Part shown: one piece after another, positions 4,873-33,628 of the stretch
Position numbering within the stretch: the stretch's first letter is position 1
Layout of the letters: each line of letters starts with the position of its first letter
From: Rhodanobacter sp. C06
GTDB lineage: Bacteria; Pseudomonadota; Gammaproteobacteria; Xanthomonadales; Rhodanobacteraceae
Reading direction: 5' to 3'
DNA length: 64,000 nucleotides
Assembly: GCF_002001105.1 (NCBI RefSeq)
Contig: NZ_MUNP01000048.1
Location: 1-64,000 of the forward strand
Position numbers and translations under genes: made by a program
The notes under the pieces: model-generated
Databases searched by the model: none
Seen by the model: only the letters and a program-made list of their open reading frames with translations
What the model was told of the DNA's origin: nothing

Positions 4873-6423
4873 ATGCTTACCGCCGCCTACGCGCGCTATT
4901 CCAGCGACCAGCAACGCGACGCCAGCCTCGACGATCAGCTTCGCAATTGCCGCGCCTATTGCGCTCGCCAAGGCTGGCCCGCGCCCGTGGAGTACACCGA
5001 CGCCGCCACCAGTGGCGCGCGCAACGACCGCGCCGGTTACCGGCGCCTGCTGGCCGATGCCTCACGCTACGCCGTGGTGTTGGTCGACGATCTCTCGCGC
5101 CTCAGTCGCGACAGCGCCGAATGTGCCATGGCGGTGCGGCGGCTCAAGTTCGCCGGCGTGCGACTGATCGGTGTCGGTGACGGCGTAGACACTGCGCGCA
5201 AATCGCACAAAGCGGATGTCGGGCTACGCGGCTTGATGTCAGAGCTGTACCTTGATGACTTAGCTGAGAAAACCCATCGCGGTCTCACCGGTCGCGCGCT
5301 GCAGGGTGCGAGCGCCGGCGGTCTCCCCTACGGCTACCGGGTTTCCGCCGTCGGTCAGCGCGTCATCGATGATGGGCAAGCCGCCGTGGTGCGGCGGATC
5401 TATGCCGCCTACATCGCCGGACAGAGTCCGCGTGCGATCGCCGACGCACTCAACCGCGAGCGCGTGCCGTCGCCGCGTGGCAGCACCTGGGCCATGTCCG
5501 TGATCTACGGCGATACCGCGCGGGGCATCGGCATCCTCGCCAACCCTATCTACGTTGGCCGCCAAGTGTGGAACCGCAGCCGCTGGGTGAAGCATCCGGA
5601 TACCGGCCGGCGCCTGCGCCAGAATCGGCCAGAGGCCGAGTGGATCACCACCGAGCACCCGGAGCTTGCCATCATCGATGCGGCTACGTGGAGCGCCGCC
5701 CAAGCGCGCATCCGCGGTGCCAGGCCCAAGCGCAAAGGTACCCCGCACGCCGGCCCAGGCCGACCACCCAGGCACCTGCTCAGCGGGCTGCTGCGCTGTG
5801 CATGCTGTGGCGGCGCCATGGTGGTAGTCGACCGCTACCGATACGGTTGCAGTACGCACAAGGATCGCGGCGAAAGCGCATGCCCCTCGCGCCTGCGCGT
5901 TCCACGCACCGCGCTGGAAGATGCATTGCTCGCCGCTGTGCGCGAGCAGTTGCTCACCGATGCCTCCTTTCAGCGCCTACAGCGCGCCGTGGCTGACGCC
6001 CTCAAGCGTGCGATGCCCGATACATCCACACTGCAGCGCGCACTGGCCGTCGCCGAGCGCGTGCGCGGCAACATCCTCGCCGCCCTGCGCGCCGGCATCA
6101 TCACGCCCAGCACCCAAGCCGAGCTGCTCGCCGCCGAAGCGGCCGTCAAGCAAGCCAGCGACGCCATCACCAGCGCGCGCCACCACCAGCCAGCGCATGT
6201 CATCCCGCGCCTGCGCGAACGCTGGCACGCCATCGTCACTGATCTTGCCAACGTCACCCGCGACATCCCCGCCGCACGCAATGCCCTGCGCGATCTGCTC
6301 GGCGAGCGCATCACCGTCGCGCCAAACGAAAACGGCGACCTCATCGCAGAGGTCGCCGCATCAGAACTGCAGATAAACATGGTAGCGGGGGCAGGATTCG
6401 AACCTGCGACCTTCGGGTTATGA
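4873..6423 (+). CDS. Large serine recombinase (site-specific integrase)
   Basis: 516 aa. Residues 1-140 form the resolvase catalytic domain: YARYSSDQQ with nucleophile Ser10, and DDLSRLSRD (72-80). Residues about 150-255 match the recombinase DNA-binding domain (GGLPYGYRV, ILANPIYVGRQVW). A zinc ribbon follows with CACC (309-312) and C326/C337. A helical C-terminal region resembles the coiled coil of large serine integrases. This class excises and integrates mobile elements without high-energy cofactors. The last 14 residues are encoded by the complement of the tRNA-fMet 3' end and the stop lies inside the tRNA gene, so the natural C-terminus may have been altered by integration. No other phage gene is present nearby. 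Confidence 0.92.
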   Translation: MLTAAYARYSSDQQRDASLDDQLRNCRAYCARQGWPAPVEYTDAATSGARNDRAGYRRLLADASRYAVVLVDDLSRLSRDSAECAMAVRRLKFAGVRLIGVGDGVDTARKSHKADVGLRGLMSELYLDDLAEKTHRGLTGRALQGASAGGLPYGYRVSAVGQRVIDDGQAAVVRRIYAAYIAGQSPRAIADALNRERVPSPRGSTWAMSVIYGDTARGIGILANPIYVGRQVWNRSRWVKHPDTGRRLRQNRPEAEWITTEHPELAIIDAATWSAAQARIRGARPKRKGTPHAGPGRPPRHLLSGLLRCACCGGAMVVVDRYRYGCSTHKDRGESACPSRLRVPRTALEDALLAAVREQLLTDASFQRLQRAVADALKRAMPDTSTLQRALAVAERVRGNILAALRAGIITPSTQAELLAAEAAVKQASDAITSARHHQPAHVIPRLRERWHAIVTDLANVTRDIPAARNALRDLLGERITVAPNENGDLIAEVAASELQINMVAGAGFEPATFGL

Positions 6424-29430: not shown

Positions 29431-30174
29431 TCAGGCCATGTACATGCCGCCGTTGACGTGCAGCGTCTCGCCGGTGATGTAGCTCGCCGCCGGCGAGGCG
29501 AGGAAGCCCACCGCCTTGGCGATGTCGCCGGCCTCGCCGAGGCGACCCAGCGCGATCTGGCCCAACAGCGCCTCCTTTGCCGACTCCGGCAAGGCGCGCG
29601 TCATGTCGGTATCGATGAAACCCGGCGCCACCACGTTCACGGTAATGCCGCGCGAACCGATCTCGCGCGCCAGCGACTTGGAGAACGCGATGATGCCGGC
29701 CTTGGCCGCCGCGTAGTTGGACTGGCCGGGATTGCCGGTGAGGCCGATCACCGAGGCGATCGAGATGATGCGGCCCTTGCGCGCCTTCATCATGCCGCGC
29801 ATCACCGCCTTCGAAGTGCGGAACACCGAGCTGAGGTTGGTGTCGAGGATGGCCTGCCAATCCGCCTCGGGCATGCGCATCAGCAACTGGTCGCGGGTGA
29901 TGCCCGCGTTGTTGACCAGGATCGACACTGCACCGAACTCCTTGGTGATGCCGTCGATCAAAGCCTCCACCGCGACGGAGTCGGTGACATTGAGCATTCG
30001 GCCGTGGCCGCCATGCACGGCCAGCCGCTCGCCGATCGCGGCGGCGCCGCTCTCGGTGGTGGCGGTGCCGATCACGGTGGCACCCATCGCGACCAGTTCG
30101 TCCGCGATCGCCGCGCCGATGCCGCGGCTGGCGCCGGTCACCAGCGCGATCTCGCCCGTCAGTGTCTTGTCCAT
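29431..30174 (-). CDS. fabG: 3-oxoacyl-ACP reductase
   Basis: 247 aa short-chain dehydrogenase. Cofactor motif [24 protein letters not shown], catalytic Ser in [14 protein letters not shown] and Tyr/Lys in NYAAAKAG. Uses NADPH to reduce 3-oxoacyl-ACP. ATG at 30174 ([14 protein letters not shown]) is preferred to the GTG one codon earlier. In relatives fabG follows fabD directly; here a five-gene cassette separates them. Confidence 0.96.
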
Positions 30175-30240
30175 CACCGTGTTCCGTCAGGATTCGAAGC
30201 CGCGAACCTTACACGGAAACGGACTCGTGCCGCACGTGGC

Positions 30241-31053
30241 TCAGCGGCAGCAGTCGGCATCTCCGCCGGCGTACTCGTCGTGGCGTCGCCACCAGATGCC
30301 GTTCGCTTCATTGCGCCCCTTGGGCGCGCGATCGAGCCACTGGTACATGCCCCACAAGCCATCCAACCCGCGCGCAAAGCTGGAGTACGTGTGATAAACG
30401 ACGCCGTCTTCGCGCACGAATGCGCTCATGCCGGGCCGTTCGCGGATGTAGGTGGCGGGATCGATGCCGCACATCCGTGCGAACTGCGAAACCGGACGTT
30501 CGCCGCCGAATTGCGTGCTCGGGCCATCCTGTGCCTGCGGGTCCGGCGCAGCGGCCTCGCGTCGATAGTTGTACTCCGCTCCGCCTTCGCGCTGCTGTTC
30601 TTCGGTGATGCCAACCGCGAAGTCGAGATTGAAATCGCTGCCGAACGAGGACGCCCAGGGGAAAATCCAGCCCAGCCGCCGTTTGTACGCCTGCAACTTC
30701 GCCAGCGGCGCGCGCGACACCGCCGTGAAAGCCACATCGTGGTTCTCCAGGTGCGCAACAAAGCCGTTGAAGCCGTCGGCGATCGCCGAGCAGGACGGGC
30801 AGCCTGCGATGTAGTCGGGACCGAACATGAAGTGGTAGACCAGCAGTTGCGAGCGCCCGCGGAACAATTCCTCCAGCGTGGCGCTGCCTGCGTCGGTGTC
30901 GAAGCGATAGTCCTTGTCGACGCGCACCCACGGCAGCGCCTGCCGCTGGCGCGCCAGCTCGTCGCCGCGCCGGGTCAACGCCTTTTCCGCTTCCAGCAAT
31001 TCAAGCCGTGCGGCACGCCACTCCGCGCGGGTTCCAATGGTGTGACTGGTCAT
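30241..31053 (-). CDS. DUF899 thioredoxin-like protein
   Basis: 270 aa. The DUF899 family has a thioredoxin-like fold; here FMFGPDYIAGCPSCSAIADGF contains C85-P-S-C88 at the active-site position, and FPWASSFGSDFNLDF, YHTYSSFARGLDGL and the terminal DEYAGG are family landmarks. Probably a cytosolic disulfide/redox protein; substrate unknown. It ends in a Cys pair (DADCCR). Last gene of the ArsR-controlled cassette, 12 nt after the DHFR-like gene, and 66 nt before fabG. Confidence 0.88.
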   Translation of the reverse strand: MTSHTIGTRAEWRAARLELLEAEKALTRRGDELARQRQALPWVRVDKDYRFDTDAGSATLEELFRGRSQLLVYHFMFGPDYIAGCPSCSAIADGFNGFVAHLENHDVAFTAVSRAPLAKLQAYKRRLGWIFPWASSFGSDFNLDFAVGITEEQQREGGAEYNYRREAAAPDPQAQDGPSTQFGGERPVSQFARMCGIDPATYIRERPGMSAFVREDGVVYHTYSSFARGLDGLWGMYQWLDRAPKGRNEANGIWWRRHDEYAGGDADCCR

Positions 31054-31065
31054 GATCGGTTCTCC

Positions 31066-31641
31066 TCAAGCCATCGCGTAGGTCAGGCCGAGTCGGCCGC
31101 CGTGCAGCGTCTCGGTCTTGCGCAGTTCCAGCCCGCGGCGCTGCCGCACGGACGCGAACAGCGCCTTGCCCTCTCCCGCAATCAACGGGTAGACGATCAA
31201 GCGCAGTTCGTCGACGAGGCCGGCCTCGATCAGGCTGGCCGTGATTCGGGCGCCGCCCATGAGATAGATGTCCTTTCCGGGTTGCTGCTTGAGCGCCGCG
31301 AGTTCGGCCACATCGCGCAGGAACCGTGTCAGCGGCCAGTTGGCCGTGTCCAAGGTGCGCGACAGCACGTAATGTGGCGTCCGTGCGGCGAAGCGGCCCC
31401 ATGCGACCTCGGCCGGCGTCGGCAACTTGCCGGTCATCGGCAATGCCGCGTCCGGCGCGTTCCGTATCGCGGTCCAGTACTGCTCGTAACCGGGATACAT
31501 GCCGCTGCCGAGCACGCAGGCGTCGATCTGCGCGGTCAGGCCGTAATCCTCCGACCAGGCGTCCACCCAGTCGGCGTAACCTTCCGGCCCTTCCATCTTG
31601 CCGTCAGCGGAAATCTTCATGCCGGCGATCAGCTTGCGCAT
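31066..31641 (-). CDS. Dihydrofolate reductase family protein (RibD_C-like)
   Basis: 191 aa, RibD C-terminal/DHFR-like fold of the YyaP/YwjB kind. MRKLIAGMKISADGKMEGPEG, YVLSRTL, IYLMGGARITASLIEAGLVDELRL (broken across family motifs) and HGGRLGLTYA are typical. Such stand-alone reductases occur with ArsR-SRPBCC pairs; natural substrate unknown and it should not be assumed to supply tetrahydrofolate. AAGGAGG lies about 5 nt upstream of the ATG. Confidence 0.85.
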   Translation of the reverse strand: MRKLIAGMKISADGKMEGPEGYADWVDAWSEDYGLTAQIDACVLGSGMYPGYEQYWTAIRNAPDAALPMTGKLPTPAEVAWGRFAARTPHYVLSRTLDTANWPLTRFLRDVAELAALKQQPGKDIYLMGGARITASLIEAGLVDELRLIVYPLIAGEGKALFASVRQRRGLELRKTETLHGGRLGLTYAMA

Positions 31642-31822
31642 GACATCCTCCTTCGTTCTGCATGGGTTGAATGGTGTTGGACACTGGCTTCCCGGGCAGC
31701 CTGCCGGGCTGCCCAAGCCGCTTGATGCGGCGCCTCGCGACGAGGACCGTGGCCAAGCCTCCGGCCGGGCCACTTCCCGCAACCGTCGCCCACGCTGCGA
31801 CACAGAGGCAGATCGGACACAT
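31604..31822 (-). CDS. Tiny CPIC-motif membrane protein
   Basis: 72 aa beginning MCPICLCVAAWATVAGSGPAG and GLATVLVARRRIKRL. A cysteine-rich start (CPIC-x-C), one short hydrophobic segment with a Gly-rich turn and a basic end match a widespread class of unnamed small proteins that travel with ArsR and SRPBCC genes. The ATG lies 3 nt after the SRPBCC stop. The 3' end overlaps the DHFR-like gene by 38 nt and its last 25 residues may be unimportant. Function unknown; a metal- or redox-linked role is inferred from the cysteines only. Confidence 0.6.
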   Translation of the reverse strand: MCPICLCVAAWATVAGSGPAGGLATVLVARRRIKRLGQPGRLPGKPVSNTIQPMQNEGGCHAQADRRHEDFR

Positions 31823-31825
31823 GAC

Positions 31826-32269
31826 TCAATTCATTCCGCCCAGGCGTGCGACCAGCGTGTCGAGGAAGAACGTCCAGCCCTCGGTGTGCGCCATCGCCAT
31901 CCGCTCGTCGGGCAGGCCTTCATGGGTCAGGCGCAACTCGGTCTGCTTGCCGCGCGGCGTGAATTCGAGCGTGACTACCGATTCCTTGCCGTGCGTGTGC
32001 TCGCTCACCCAGGTGAACTCAAGCAGGCGCGGACTTTCCACGCGCAGGTAACGGCCGTAGTGCGGGCGCACCTGGCCCGAGTACAGCATGCCGAGGTAGA
32101 ACAAGCCGTCGGGGCGCGGATCGGCCACCACGTCGCCACCCTCCGCCAGCCACGCCTTCATGCTGGCCGGGTCGGTCCAGGCACGGAACACCCGCTCGGG
32201 CGAGGCATCGTAGCTGCGAGGGATCTCCAGGCGAAACGAACCCATTGCGCTTTCATTGCGACCCTTCAT
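31826..32269 (-). CDS. SRPBCC (AHSA1-like) domain protein
   Basis: 147 aa START/Bet v1-like ligand-binding fold of the activator-of-Hsp90 homologue type: RSYDASPERVFRAWTDPASMKAW, YLRVESPRLLEFTW, VTLEFTPRGKQTELRLTHEG and GWTFFLDTLVARL. These proteins bind hydrophobic ligands and are regularly paired with ArsR regulators. ATG at 32269 has AGGGG 8 nt upstream and overlaps arsR by 17 nt. Confidence 0.88.
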   Translation of the reverse strand: MKGRNESAMGSFRLEIPRSYDASPERVFRAWTDPASMKAWLAEGGDVVADPRPDGLFYLGMLYSGQVRPHYGRYLRVESPRLLEFTWVSEHTHGKESVVTLEFTPRGKQTELRLTHEGLPDERMAMAHTEGWTFFLDTLVARLGGMN

Positions 32270-32603
32270 CGTCGTTCCCCTGCTGCTGATCGAGGAATGT
32301 GCCCAGCGCGTCGAGGCGCTGGTTCCAGAAGCGTTCGTACTGCGAGGTCCATTTGGCGACTTCGCGCAGCGGTGCGGCGCGCAGGCGCAGGTAGTGTTCG
32401 CGGCCCTCGCGGCGGCGGCGGACCAAGCCCGCGCCCTCCAGCACCTTGACGTGTTTGGACACCGCGTTCAGCGACATCGCGAACGGCTGTGCGAGGTCCG
32501 TCACCCGCAACTCGCCGCGGGTCAGCCGCGCCACGATGCGGCGACGGGTAGGATCGGCGAGCGCGGCGAAGGCGAGATCGAGGTTCGACATGGCGACATT
32601 CAT
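32253..32603 (-). CDS. ArsR-family transcriptional regulator
   Basis: 116-aa winged-helix protein: FAALADPTRRRIVARL, TVTDLAQPF-type helix as RVTDLAQPFAMSLNAVSKHVKVLEGAGLVRR, then a C-terminal helix with WNQRLDALGTFL. No clear metal-binding Cys cluster (ELCVCDL-type) is present, so it probably senses something other than arsenic, as most SRPBCC-linked ArsR proteins do. The start overlaps a perfect palindrome, implying autorepression. The leader is only about 10 nt with AAAGG. Confidence 0.92.
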   Translation of the reverse strand: MNVAMSNLDLAFAALADPTRRRIVARLTRGELRVTDLAQPFAMSLNAVSKHVKVLEGAGLVRRRREGREHYLRLRAAPLREVAKWTSQYERFWNQRLDALGTFLDQQQGNDDEGSQ

Positions 32604-32621
32604 TCAACCTTTTGGTTGAAT
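32602..32621 (-). promoter_or_regulatory. ArsR operator palindrome
   Basis: ATTCAACC-N4-GGTTGAAT is a perfect 8-bp inverted repeat spanning the end of the -10 box, the predicted transcription start and the arsR start codon. Position and symmetry fit an autoregulatory ArsR operator. Confidence 0.75.
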
Positions 32622-32647
32622 AATACGCCGATGAAAAGGCGCGTCAA
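32620..32647 (-). promoter_or_regulatory. Cassette promoter
   Basis: On the minus strand TTGACG and TATTAT (each 5/6 to consensus) are separated by 16 bp, directly upstream of and touching the operator. Confidence 0.7.
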
Positions 32648-32657
32648 GCGCGCCCTT
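32633..32657 (-). terminator. Intrinsic terminator after fabD
   Basis: Minus-strand GGCGCG-CTTGA-CGCGCC followed by TTTT. It ends the fabHD transcript just before the ArsR cassette; the cassette -35 box lies inside its loop and stem. Confidence 0.65.
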
Positions 32658-32677
32658 TCGCGAAGCCTGGTTTCCGC

Positions 32678-33628
32678 TCAGCCGCGCCAGTCGGCCAGCG
32701 TGGCGTCGAACTCGGCCGGCGCACCGATGGCGCGGCCTTCGATGCTCTTGTCGATGCGCTTGACCAGACCGGCCAGCACCTTGCCCGGTCCGCATTCGGC
32801 GATGCGCGTGGCGCCGCCGGCGGCCAGCGCCTGCACGCATTCCGTCCAGCGCACGGGCAGGTAGAGCTGGCGCTGCAGCGCGCCGCGGATCTCGTCCAGC
32901 GAGGCGTAACGCTGGGCCTCGGCGTTCTGGATCACCGGGATCGTCGGCAGCCGCCACTGGATCGATGCCATGCGCTCGCCCAGCTTGTCGGCCGCTTCGC
33001 GCATCAGCATGCAGTGCGAAGGTACCGACACGGCCAGCTTGATGGCCTTCTTCACGCCCAGCTCGGCGAGCCGCACCAGTGCACGATCCACCGCCTCGGC
33101 GTTGCCTGCGATCACCAGTTGGCCCGGCGAGTTGTAGTTCGCCGGCGCCACCACCTGGCCTTGCGCAACCTCTTCGCACACTTGCGCGATCTGCGCATCG
33201 TCGCCGCCCAGGATCGCCGCCATCGCGCCCACGCCGGCCGGCACCGCCGCCTGCATCAGGCGGCCGCGCTCGGCCACCAGCGCGGCCGCGTCATGCAGCG
33301 ACAAGGCGCCGGCGCAAACCAGCGCGCTGTATTCGCCGAGGCTGTGACCGGCGAGCTGCGCGGGCCGCGCGCCGCCGAGCTTGTTCCACACGCGCCACAC
33401 CGCGACGCTGGCCGCGAGCAGGGCCGGCTGGGTGTGCTCCGTGCGGTTGAGCTGGTCTTCCGGACCCTGCTGGCTGAGCACCCACAGGTCCGCGCCCGCA
33501 CCCTGCGAGGCCTCGTCGAAGGTCGCCTTCACCTCGCCATGCGCGGCAGCCAGTTCGGCCAGCATGCCGACCGATTGCGAACCCTGGCCCGGGAAGACGA
33601 AGGCGAGATTGGAATGGGTGGTGCTCAT
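32678..33628 (-). CDS. fabD: Malonyl-CoA:ACP transacylase
   Basis: 316 aa. FVFPGQGSQSVGM, catalytic Ser in GHSLGEYSALV, active-site His in SVPSHCMLM, and NYNSPGQLVIAG are family hallmarks. Transfers malonyl groups to AcpP for chain elongation. Follows fabH with a 110-nt gap that holds a GC-rich hairpin repeat. Confidence 0.97.
   Translation of the reverse strand: MSTTHSNLAFVFPGQGSQSVGMLAELAAAHGEVKATFDEASQGAGADLWVLSQQGPEDQLNRTEHTQPALLAASVAVWRVWNKLGGARPAQLAGHSLGEYSALVCAGALSLHDAAALVAERGRLMQAAVPAGVGAMAAILGGDDAQIAQVCEEVAQGQVVAPANYNSPGQLVIAGNAEAVDRALVRLAELGVKKAIKLAVSVPSHCMLMREAADKLGERMASIQWRLPTIPVIQNAEAQRYASLDEIRGALQRQLYLPVRWTECVQALAAGGATRIAECGPGKVLAGLVKRIDKSIEGRAIGAPAEFDATLADWRG

What the first reader, a model, noticed from the sequence alone, without database searches (positions are those of the whole stretch)
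30178..32677. Five-gene ArsR redox cassette inserted inside the fatty-acid cluster
fabH-fabD and fabG-acpP-fabF are normally contiguous. Here they are split by arsR, SRPBCC, a tiny CPIC membrane protein, a DHFR-like reductase and a DUF899 thioredoxin-fold protein, with a terminator after fabD and a promoter with palindromic operator. Two members carry CxxC motifs. This looks like a coherent, probably mobile, ligand- or redox-responsive unit with unknown function.
Basis: partly seen in the sequence, partly recalled or inferred. Interest (0 to 1): 0.62.

Follow-up and report, generated by a model that had tools for sequence, protein, structure and literature searches.

The report
ArsR stress operon within fatty-acid genes
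In some bacteria related to Rhodanobacter, a small self-regulated gene set (a repressor, a lipid-binding-type protein, a peroxidase-like protein and a tiny membrane protein) sits between two fatty-acid synthesis genes; the arrangement is real and probably old rather than a fresh mobile insertion, and it exposes an uncatalogued tiny protein that keeps company with a little-studied thioredoxin-like family.

Summary
Between fabD (32678-33628, -) and fabG (29431-30177, -) lie arsR, an AHSA1/SRPBCC gene, a 72-codon MCPIC frame, a RibD_C (DHFR-like) gene and a DUF899 gene, with a promoter and a perfect palindrome over the arsR start. Of 15 genus genomes, 6 carry the unit here and 9 do not. All five genes occur in only 2 of 13 family genomes with this arsR at the fab site; the stable core is arsR-AHSA1. 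Five genera share the site, and the arsR-AHSA1 tree does not keep fab copies apart, so I read it as an old residence with losses and exchange, not a recent mobile cassette. TTCAACC-N4-GGTTGAA precedes this ArsR in 70 of 80 named loci (2 of 1600 control windows) and occurs exactly once in each carrier genome: a local autorepressor. The six carriers' ArsRs have no cysteine, so ArsR itself is no thiol sensor. Best new result: the tiny protein is real; N-terminal MCPxC relatives were found at 20 sites, 19 beside DUF899, with no Pfam or NCBIfam match. Likely function (inferred): a derepressible thiol-peroxidase-like stress operon. The ArsR-AHSA1 pairing itself is already noted in print (Frankia).

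The parts
32678..33628 (-). fabD, upstream neighbour
   Evidence: NCBIfam TIGR00128 341.5 bits, cut-off 260.9
32633..32659 (-). hairpin after fabD: 11-pair stem, loop CTTGA holding the start of the -35; present in 5 of 5 genus carriers that span it (loop TTGAC in G001) and, with other stem letters, in two Dokdonella loci
   Evidence: not called a terminator by the scan
32620..32647 (-). sigma-70-type promoter TTGACG-16-TATTAT
   Evidence: same hexamers in G000, G010, G014, G007, G001, L157
32602..32621 (.). operator palindrome ATTCAACC-N4-GGTTGAAT over -10 and arsR start
32253..32603 (-). arsR, 116 aa, no cysteine
   Evidence: PF12840 2.5e-13, NF033788 5.8e-25
31826..32269 (-). AHSA1/SRPBCC protein, 147 aa; overlaps arsR by 17 bases
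   Evidence: PF08327 3.5e-27
31604..31822 (-). tiny MCPxC protein, 72 codons here (conserved part about the first 40); overlaps the ribDC start
   Evidence: N-terminal relatives at 20 sites, this one included
31066..31641 (-). RibD_C / DHFR-like protein, 191 aa
   Evidence: PF01872 1.9e-18; PDB 2gd9 YyaP 6.3e-21
30241..31053 (-). DUF899 protein, 270 aa, CPSC at residues 85-88, C-terminal CC
   Evidence: PF05988 4.4e-94
30205..30218 (-). TTCCGTGTAAGGTT, possible -10 region of a fabG promoter, found in carriers only
   Evidence: 10 of 12 carrier loci, 0 of 13 non-carriers
29431..30177 (-). fabG, downstream neighbour
   Evidence: NF004197 415.4 bits, cut-off 332

Best explanation
A small self-repressed operon. 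The stable core is arsR-AHSA1; DUF899, the MCPxC membrane peptide and a DHFR-like reductase are cargo that varies between strains. The ArsR dimer binds ATTCAACC-N4-GGTTGAAT over the -10 and the start of arsR and shuts off its own promoter (operator and position shown by conservation; binding inferred). A signal other than ArsR cysteine oxidation or cysteine metal binding, most simply a small hydrophobic ligand possibly also bound by the AHSA1 protein, lifts repression (inferred). The products then act as a thiol-based detoxification set: DUF899 as a peroxiredoxin-like thiol protein and the MCPxC peptide as its membrane partner or anchor (fold class and adjacency shown, chemistry and membrane span inferred). 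The operon is an old resident of the fabD-fabG junction in part of the family, lost or replaced in many strains (inferred from trees), and is set apart by its own promoter and a separate fabG promoter (sequence elements shown, activity inferred).
For: Operator with 2 or fewer mismatches of 14 in 70 of 80 loci, against 2 of 1600 control windows; exactly one exact site in each of the 6 carriers and no exact site in the other 9 genus genomes. AHSA1 follows ArsR in 76 of 80 loci; of the four misses two end at a contig edge and one (L213) has AHSA1 on the other strand. DUF899 in 18 of the 80 loci, also in records titled Rokubacteria, Gemmatimonadetes, Rhizobium and Caballeronia; in four (L196, L200, L208, L213) it lies on the other strand. 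MCPxC: 19 of 20 sites beside DUF899, order varying; one shared open frame in G283. DUF899 fold: 159 PDB matches at E <= 0.001; the 50 shown are peroxiredoxins, other thioredoxin-fold proteins, a BCP complex model and one unnamed protein. Fab residence in 13 of 19 family genomes with this ArsR clade, five genera. fabG element in 10 of 12 carrier loci, 0 of 13 others.
Against: No expression, binding or enzyme data. The DUF899 model is weak (mean pLDDT 64.5), and TM-scores normalised by the query are 0.29-0.42 in the rows shown. DUF899 does not need the operon: 0 of 11 full-length orthologues fetched outside the carriers have the arsR-AHSA1 pair beside them in the fetched stretches (6.5-8 kb each), though L137 has a weak ArsR match (3e-7) and L141 a weak AHSA1 match (1.4e-5). 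Of 30 loci fetched for DUF899 in the phylum sample, a pattern search found an MCPxC frame only in the window's own. In G008 the AHSA1 frame ends early and the DUF899 match holds a stop; CPIC is eroded in G007 and G008 and absent in G001, so cargo is dispensable. No terminator was found between DUF899 and fabG, so separation from fabG is not certain. The promoter hexamers differ or were not matched in L159, L160, L161 and L163.
Confidence: 0.55

Rival explanations
1. Recent mobile cassette: the block moves as a unit and was inserted in the fab cluster of a few strains.
For: Patchy presence (6 of 15); the fabF+pabB tree rejects the 6 carriers as one clade (p-AU 1.4e-77; with the fabH stretch added p 2.4e-6) while the fabG tree groups them weakly (support 70/85), which fits transfer of the cassette with fabG between strains.
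Against: The same fabD-fabG site in five genera; no recombinase among the frames; no direct repeat of 14 nt or more spans both flanking gaps; no plasmid or phage record covers 80%; GC3 of the four larger genes (0.81-0.86) is only slightly below fabD, fabG and fabF (0.89-0.93). Homologous exchange and loss would also give the tree conflict.
Confidence: 0.15
2. Regulatory switch for fatty-acid synthesis: the ArsR promoter reads through into fabG-acpP-fabF, so the stress signal changes lipid synthesis.
For: Same strand, 61-98 bases from DUF899 to fabG in the six genus carriers and no terminator found in the window stretch; fab site kept in five genera; in L162 (Dokdonella) AHSA1 is 98 bases from fabG.
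Against: 10 of 12 carrier loci have their own conserved element before fabG; five family genomes have the unit away from fab; 9 of 15 genus genomes do without it.
Confidence: 0.2
3. Neutral hitch-hiker: the fabD-fabG junction merely tolerates inserts, and the unit's place has no meaning.
For: Other inserts at the same junction: a DUF1737 frame in G013 and G004, an alpha/beta hydrolase in L160, a short-chain dehydrogenase in L173; decay in G007 and G008.
Against: Operator and promoter are nearly unchanged in the genus carriers and their ArsRs are 91-98% identical to the window's, which suggests selection on the unit, though not on its place.
Confidence: 0.25

Closest known systems
ArsR genes paired with AHSA1 genes
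   Different: In the passage read there is no operator, DUF899, MCPxC or fab location.
ArsR/SmtB autorepressors (NF033788; PDB 3f6o and SmtB 1r1t by sequence)
   Same: Winged-helix family; palindrome over own promoter.
   Different: No cysteine for metal or thiol sensing; partner is AHSA1, not a metal efflux gene.
AHSA1/SRPBCC small ligand-binding-type proteins (2lak, 3eli)
   Same: Family match 3.5e-27.
   Different: No ligand known; encoded in one unit with its ArsR.
DUF899 (PF05988), thioredoxin-like clan
   Same: Full-length match, CxxC invariant. [quoted passage not shown]
   Different: Genus carrier copies end in CC plus one or two residues; beside the MCPxC peptide in part of the family.
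Peroxiredoxin Q / Bcp (5iow, 3drn)
   Same: Predicted fold, CxxC at the start of a core helix.
   Different: 11-13% identity for these two, weak model; activity untested.
YyaP-type DHFR-like RibD_C proteins (2gd9)
   Same: Sequence match 6.3e-21.
   Different: Substrate unknown; optional member.

Membership tests
ArsR repressor | winged HTH of the ArsR type | tested here: met
   PF12840 50.2 bits, cut-off 27; NF033788 86.9 bits, cut-off 55
ArsR repressor | palindromic operator at own promoter | tested here: met
   70 of 80 loci against 2 of 1600 control windows
Metal- or thiol-sensing ArsR/SmtB | sensing cysteines | tested here: not met
   0 Cys in all six genus carriers; 63 of 80 related loci have none, 14 one, 3 two. 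Metal binding by His or Asp not tested.
ArsR repressor | DNA binding and release by effector | not testable with these tools
   needs footprinting
DUF899 | Pfam match over cut-off, full length | tested here: met
   314.7 bits, cut-off 27, residues 1-261
Peroxiredoxin | peroxidase fold with peroxidatic Cys | tested here: inconclusive
   Foldseek E 8e-6 to 2e-4 in the rows shown, but model pLDDT 64.5; no Pfam AhpC-TSA hit for the window protein at 0.001
Mobile cassette or genomic island | own recombinase, or copies on plasmids or phages | tested here: not met
   no recombinase among the frames between fabD and fabG; no record covers 80%
Mobile cassette or genomic island | direct repeats at both ends | tested here: not met
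   none of 11 direct-repeat families of 14 nt or more has copies in both flanking gaps; shorter repeats not tested
MCPxC small protein as a gene family | conserved frame in independent genomes with recurring context | tested here: met
   20 sites in 19 genomes, 19 next to DUF899

The most novel reading that the evidence does not exclude
The MCPxC peptide and DUF899 form an undescribed thiol pair: a peroxiredoxin-like protein with a dedicated small membrane partner (44-85 residues in most cases) that carries an N-terminal CPxC. In Rhodanobacter and relatives this pair has been put under a ligand-sensing ArsR-AHSA1 switch inside the core fatty-acid operon, so that lipid or electrophile stress and fatty-acid synthesis share one control point.
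Probability: 0.25. Interest if true: 0.65.

Novelty: new variant of a known kind. Interest (0 to 1): 0.45.

Why it matters
DUF899 is widespread (60 of 398 phylum genomes), yet only three papers in the searched library name it. A recurring small partner and a defined operator give two direct handles on its function. A repressor unit kept inside the fatty-acid cluster in several genera makes a link between stress sensing and lipid synthesis testable.

Tried and rejected
A recent mobile insertion was considered and set low. The plasmid search found 69 records with a match; the 10 listed cover 31-32% of the query, all over the DUF899 part; the phage search found two short matches, 13% and 6% of the query. 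The repeat search showed no pair with copies in both gaps. ArsR as an oxidative thiol sensor was rejected: no Cys. The MCPIC frame as a chance frame was my first view (no family hit, overlaps ribDC, absent in G001); the profile searches overturned it. An exchange reading for L157 (fabD and fabG closer to Rhodanobacter than its flanks) is weak: nucleotide identities to G000 are fabH 86, fabD 89, fabG 88, fabF 84, pabB 77.

Tallying downstream cargo mechanically (133 frames picked; 106 of them aligned and scanned) gave DUF899 in 5, AHSA1 in 5 and RibD_C in 2 of 106; many picked frames are probably spurious, so it is only a hint. tblastn of two MCPxC proteins against plasmids gave no match for one and three matches at E 2-5 for the other. 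Paper searches: I saw listings, and passages of PMC3091736, PMC8638967 and PMC4531530. PMC4531530 does describe the ArsR-AHSA1 pairing; none of the listed titles describes the unit with DUF899, MCPxC or the fab site, but searches listed only 20 of 317 and 15 of 368 papers, and 10 of 27. ARAGORN's tRNA-Sec at 5067 was not matched by Rfam at gathering scores and was not pursued.

Errors and dropped rows: my fabH query was in the wrong frame, so fabH protein identities mean nothing; the DNA stretch is right, and the tree was repeated without fabH. One search stopped with an error after 17 of 20 rows; the last three (G750, G667, G671) rest on coordinates. MCPxC matches that did not begin at profile residue 1 were left out: 17 of 28 rows, 2 of 8, 1 of 5. 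In those searches only part of the candidates of most genomes were scored, so counts are lower bounds. No formal chance test of the MCPxC-DUF899 adjacency was run.
Full report
What is there. The nearest named loci to the window's ArsR include Rhodanobacter records, and the genome search places the window's genome in one genus with 14 others; that the family is Rhodanobacteraceae is my inference from names. On the - strand, between fabD and fabG, are arsR, AHSA1, a 72-codon MCPIC frame, RibD_C and DUF899. arsR and AHSA1 overlap by 17 bases, MCPIC begins 3 bases after AHSA1 and overlaps the ribDC start, and DUF899 begins 12 bases after ribDC, so one transcript is likely (inference).

Control region. 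The 74 bases between fabD and arsR hold a hairpin, the promoter TTGACG-16-TATTAT and the palindrome ATTCAACC-N4-GGTTGAAT that runs from the -10 to the arsR start codon. In the five genus carriers that span this stretch and in L157, hexamers and palindrome are unchanged; other genera vary in the hexamers. Over 80 named loci with a related ArsR, 70 have the site with at most 2 mismatches of 14 between 130 bases upstream and 20 bases downstream of the ArsR match start; 2 of 1600 control windows from the same loci do. In the genus the exact site occurs once in each of 6 carriers and in none of 9 others; one-mismatch sites occur once each in G012, G011 and G008, and the reversed control pattern once in G005. 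So this ArsR is most likely a local autorepressor. It has no cysteine in the six carriers; of 80 related loci 63 have none, 14 have one and 3 have two in the stretch counted.

The hairpin deserves care. Its loop (CTTGA, or TTGAC in G001 and L157) contains the start of the -35 hexamer, and its stem is kept with different letters in two Dokdonella loci. In the genus the 3' arm holds three or four T, in Dokdonella it does not, and the terminator scan found nothing in the window. Whether it ends fabD transcripts is open.

Distribution. Of 15 genus genomes, 6 have arsR at 90% identity or more between fabD and fabG (G000, G010, G014, G007, G008, G001); in G008 the junction falls at contig ends, so adjacency there is inferred. 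The other 9 have 37-220 bases between fabD and fabG. Among 233 family genomes, 19 have this ArsR clade at E below 1e-54: 13 at the fab junction (G008, G064 and G246 seen from one side or over two contigs), 5 elsewhere and 1 cut by a contig end. All five genes occur in 2 of the 13 (G000, G010). The rest: arsR-AHSA1-ribDC-DUF899 in G001; arsR-AHSA1-MCPxC-DUF899 in G014, G068 and (over two contigs) G064; arsR-AHSA1-DUF899 in G007, G008, G070 and, with a partial ribDC match, G226; arsR-AHSA1 alone or with an unrelated gene in G246, G095, G087. Named loci were equated with handles (L157 = G226, L159 = G246, L160 = G068, L161 = G064, L162 = G095, L163 = G070, L173 = G087) because coordinates or identities agree; this is inference.

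History. The tree of fabF and pabB puts the carriers in three places within a group of 10 genomes (6 carriers, 4 not) and rejects them as one clade (p-AU 1.4e-77), whereas fabG groups them, weakly (support 70/85). The fabD tree neither groups them nor clearly rejects grouping (p 0.059). In the ArsR-AHSA1 tree the 13 fab-located copies are not one clade either (p 0.021); eight non-fab copies fall among them as the tree is drawn. My reading is an old place at the fab junction, loss in many strains, exit in one lineage, and exchange between strains by homologous recombination through fabD and fabG. This is inference; two arrivals at the same site are not excluded.

fabG side. The element TTCCGTGTA-NN-GTT lies 41-44 bases before the fabG match in 10 of 12 carrier loci and in 0 of 13 non-carriers; the two carriers without it are the Dokdonella loci L162 and L173. 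It may be the -10 region of a fabG promoter kept with the unit (inference). With it fabG need not depend on read-through, though no terminator was found between DUF899 and fabG.

The tiny protein. A profile of three MCPIC proteins found 11 N-terminal matches in the family sample of 233, the three included; a pattern search added G027; wider profiles added 5 sites in 4 of 369 class genomes and 3 in 398 phylum genomes besides G000. Of these 20 sites in 19 genomes, 19 lie beside DUF899: 12 before it (with ribDC between in G000 and G010, and one open frame with the start of DUF899 in G283), 7 after a DUF899 gene or pair (G027, G128, G135, G137, G140, G141, G142). The exception is one of two copies in G565, where only a short DUF899-like start is visible by eye. 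In the same 398 genomes only 60 have DUF899, so chance adjacency looks very unlikely, though I ran no formal test. The reverse does not hold: among 30 loci fetched for DUF899 the pattern search found MCPxC only in the window's own. M1, C2, P3, C5, G16 and G22 are invariant in 16 aligned; one hydrophobic stretch (best 19-residue mean hydropathy 1.3-1.9 in the rows) and a basic tail suggest one membrane span (inference). No Pfam match reached 0.001 and no NCBIfam match reached E 1 in the relatives tested.

DUF899. C85 and C88 are invariant in 17 of 17. The predicted model is modest (pLDDT 64.5, pTM 0.65), but its best PDB matches are peroxiredoxins of the Bcp/PrxQ type. By sequence the PDB gave only E 0.63-0.97, to AhpE-like chains (that they are AhpE is partly recalled).

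Mechanism. Best reading: ArsR represses its own promoter; a non-thiol signal lifts it; the AHSA1 protein, DUF899, the MCPxC peptide and at times a DHFR-like reductase then handle a reactive or lipophilic stressor. Shown: gene order, operator, conservation, adjacency, fold class. Inferred: binding, signal, thiol chemistry, membrane partnership.

Verdict. The ArsR-AHSA1 pairing is already in print for Frankia as a potential operon of unknown meaning (PMC4531530, passage). What I did not find in print in the nine searches named in Tried and rejected is the MCPxC small protein beside DUF899, the shared operator and the place in the fatty-acid cluster; subscription journals are mostly absent from the library.

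Noticed in passing
L070, L071 fabD-fabG gap (G013, G004): A 67-residue DUF1737 frame (4.3e-21) fills the same junction in two genus mates without the unit.
   Followed up: partly
L160:6679-7644 and L173:5777-6574: An alpha/beta hydrolase and a short-chain dehydrogenase are extra genes before fabG in two carriers: the junction is a variable spot.
   Followed up: partly
L075:2342-3934 (-), G012: A PMT_2-type glycosyltransferase frame lies between fabG and acpP, so the fab cluster is split at a second place too.
   Followed up: no
L078:1781-2725, G001: FabD is only 68% identical to the window's while FabG is 94% and FabF 90%: probable replacement of fabD.
   Followed up: no
window 32633-32659 and L162, L173: Hairpin whose loop holds the start of the -35 hexamer, stem kept with changed letters in Dokdonella; role unknown.
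   Followed up: partly
L280, L282, L285: YCII-domain genes stand just before the MCPxC-DUF899 pair (YCII confirmed for L280; the others by eye).
   Followed up: no
window 5067-5162: ARAGORN calls a tRNA-Sec here that Rfam does not match at gathering scores; probably false.
   Followed up: no
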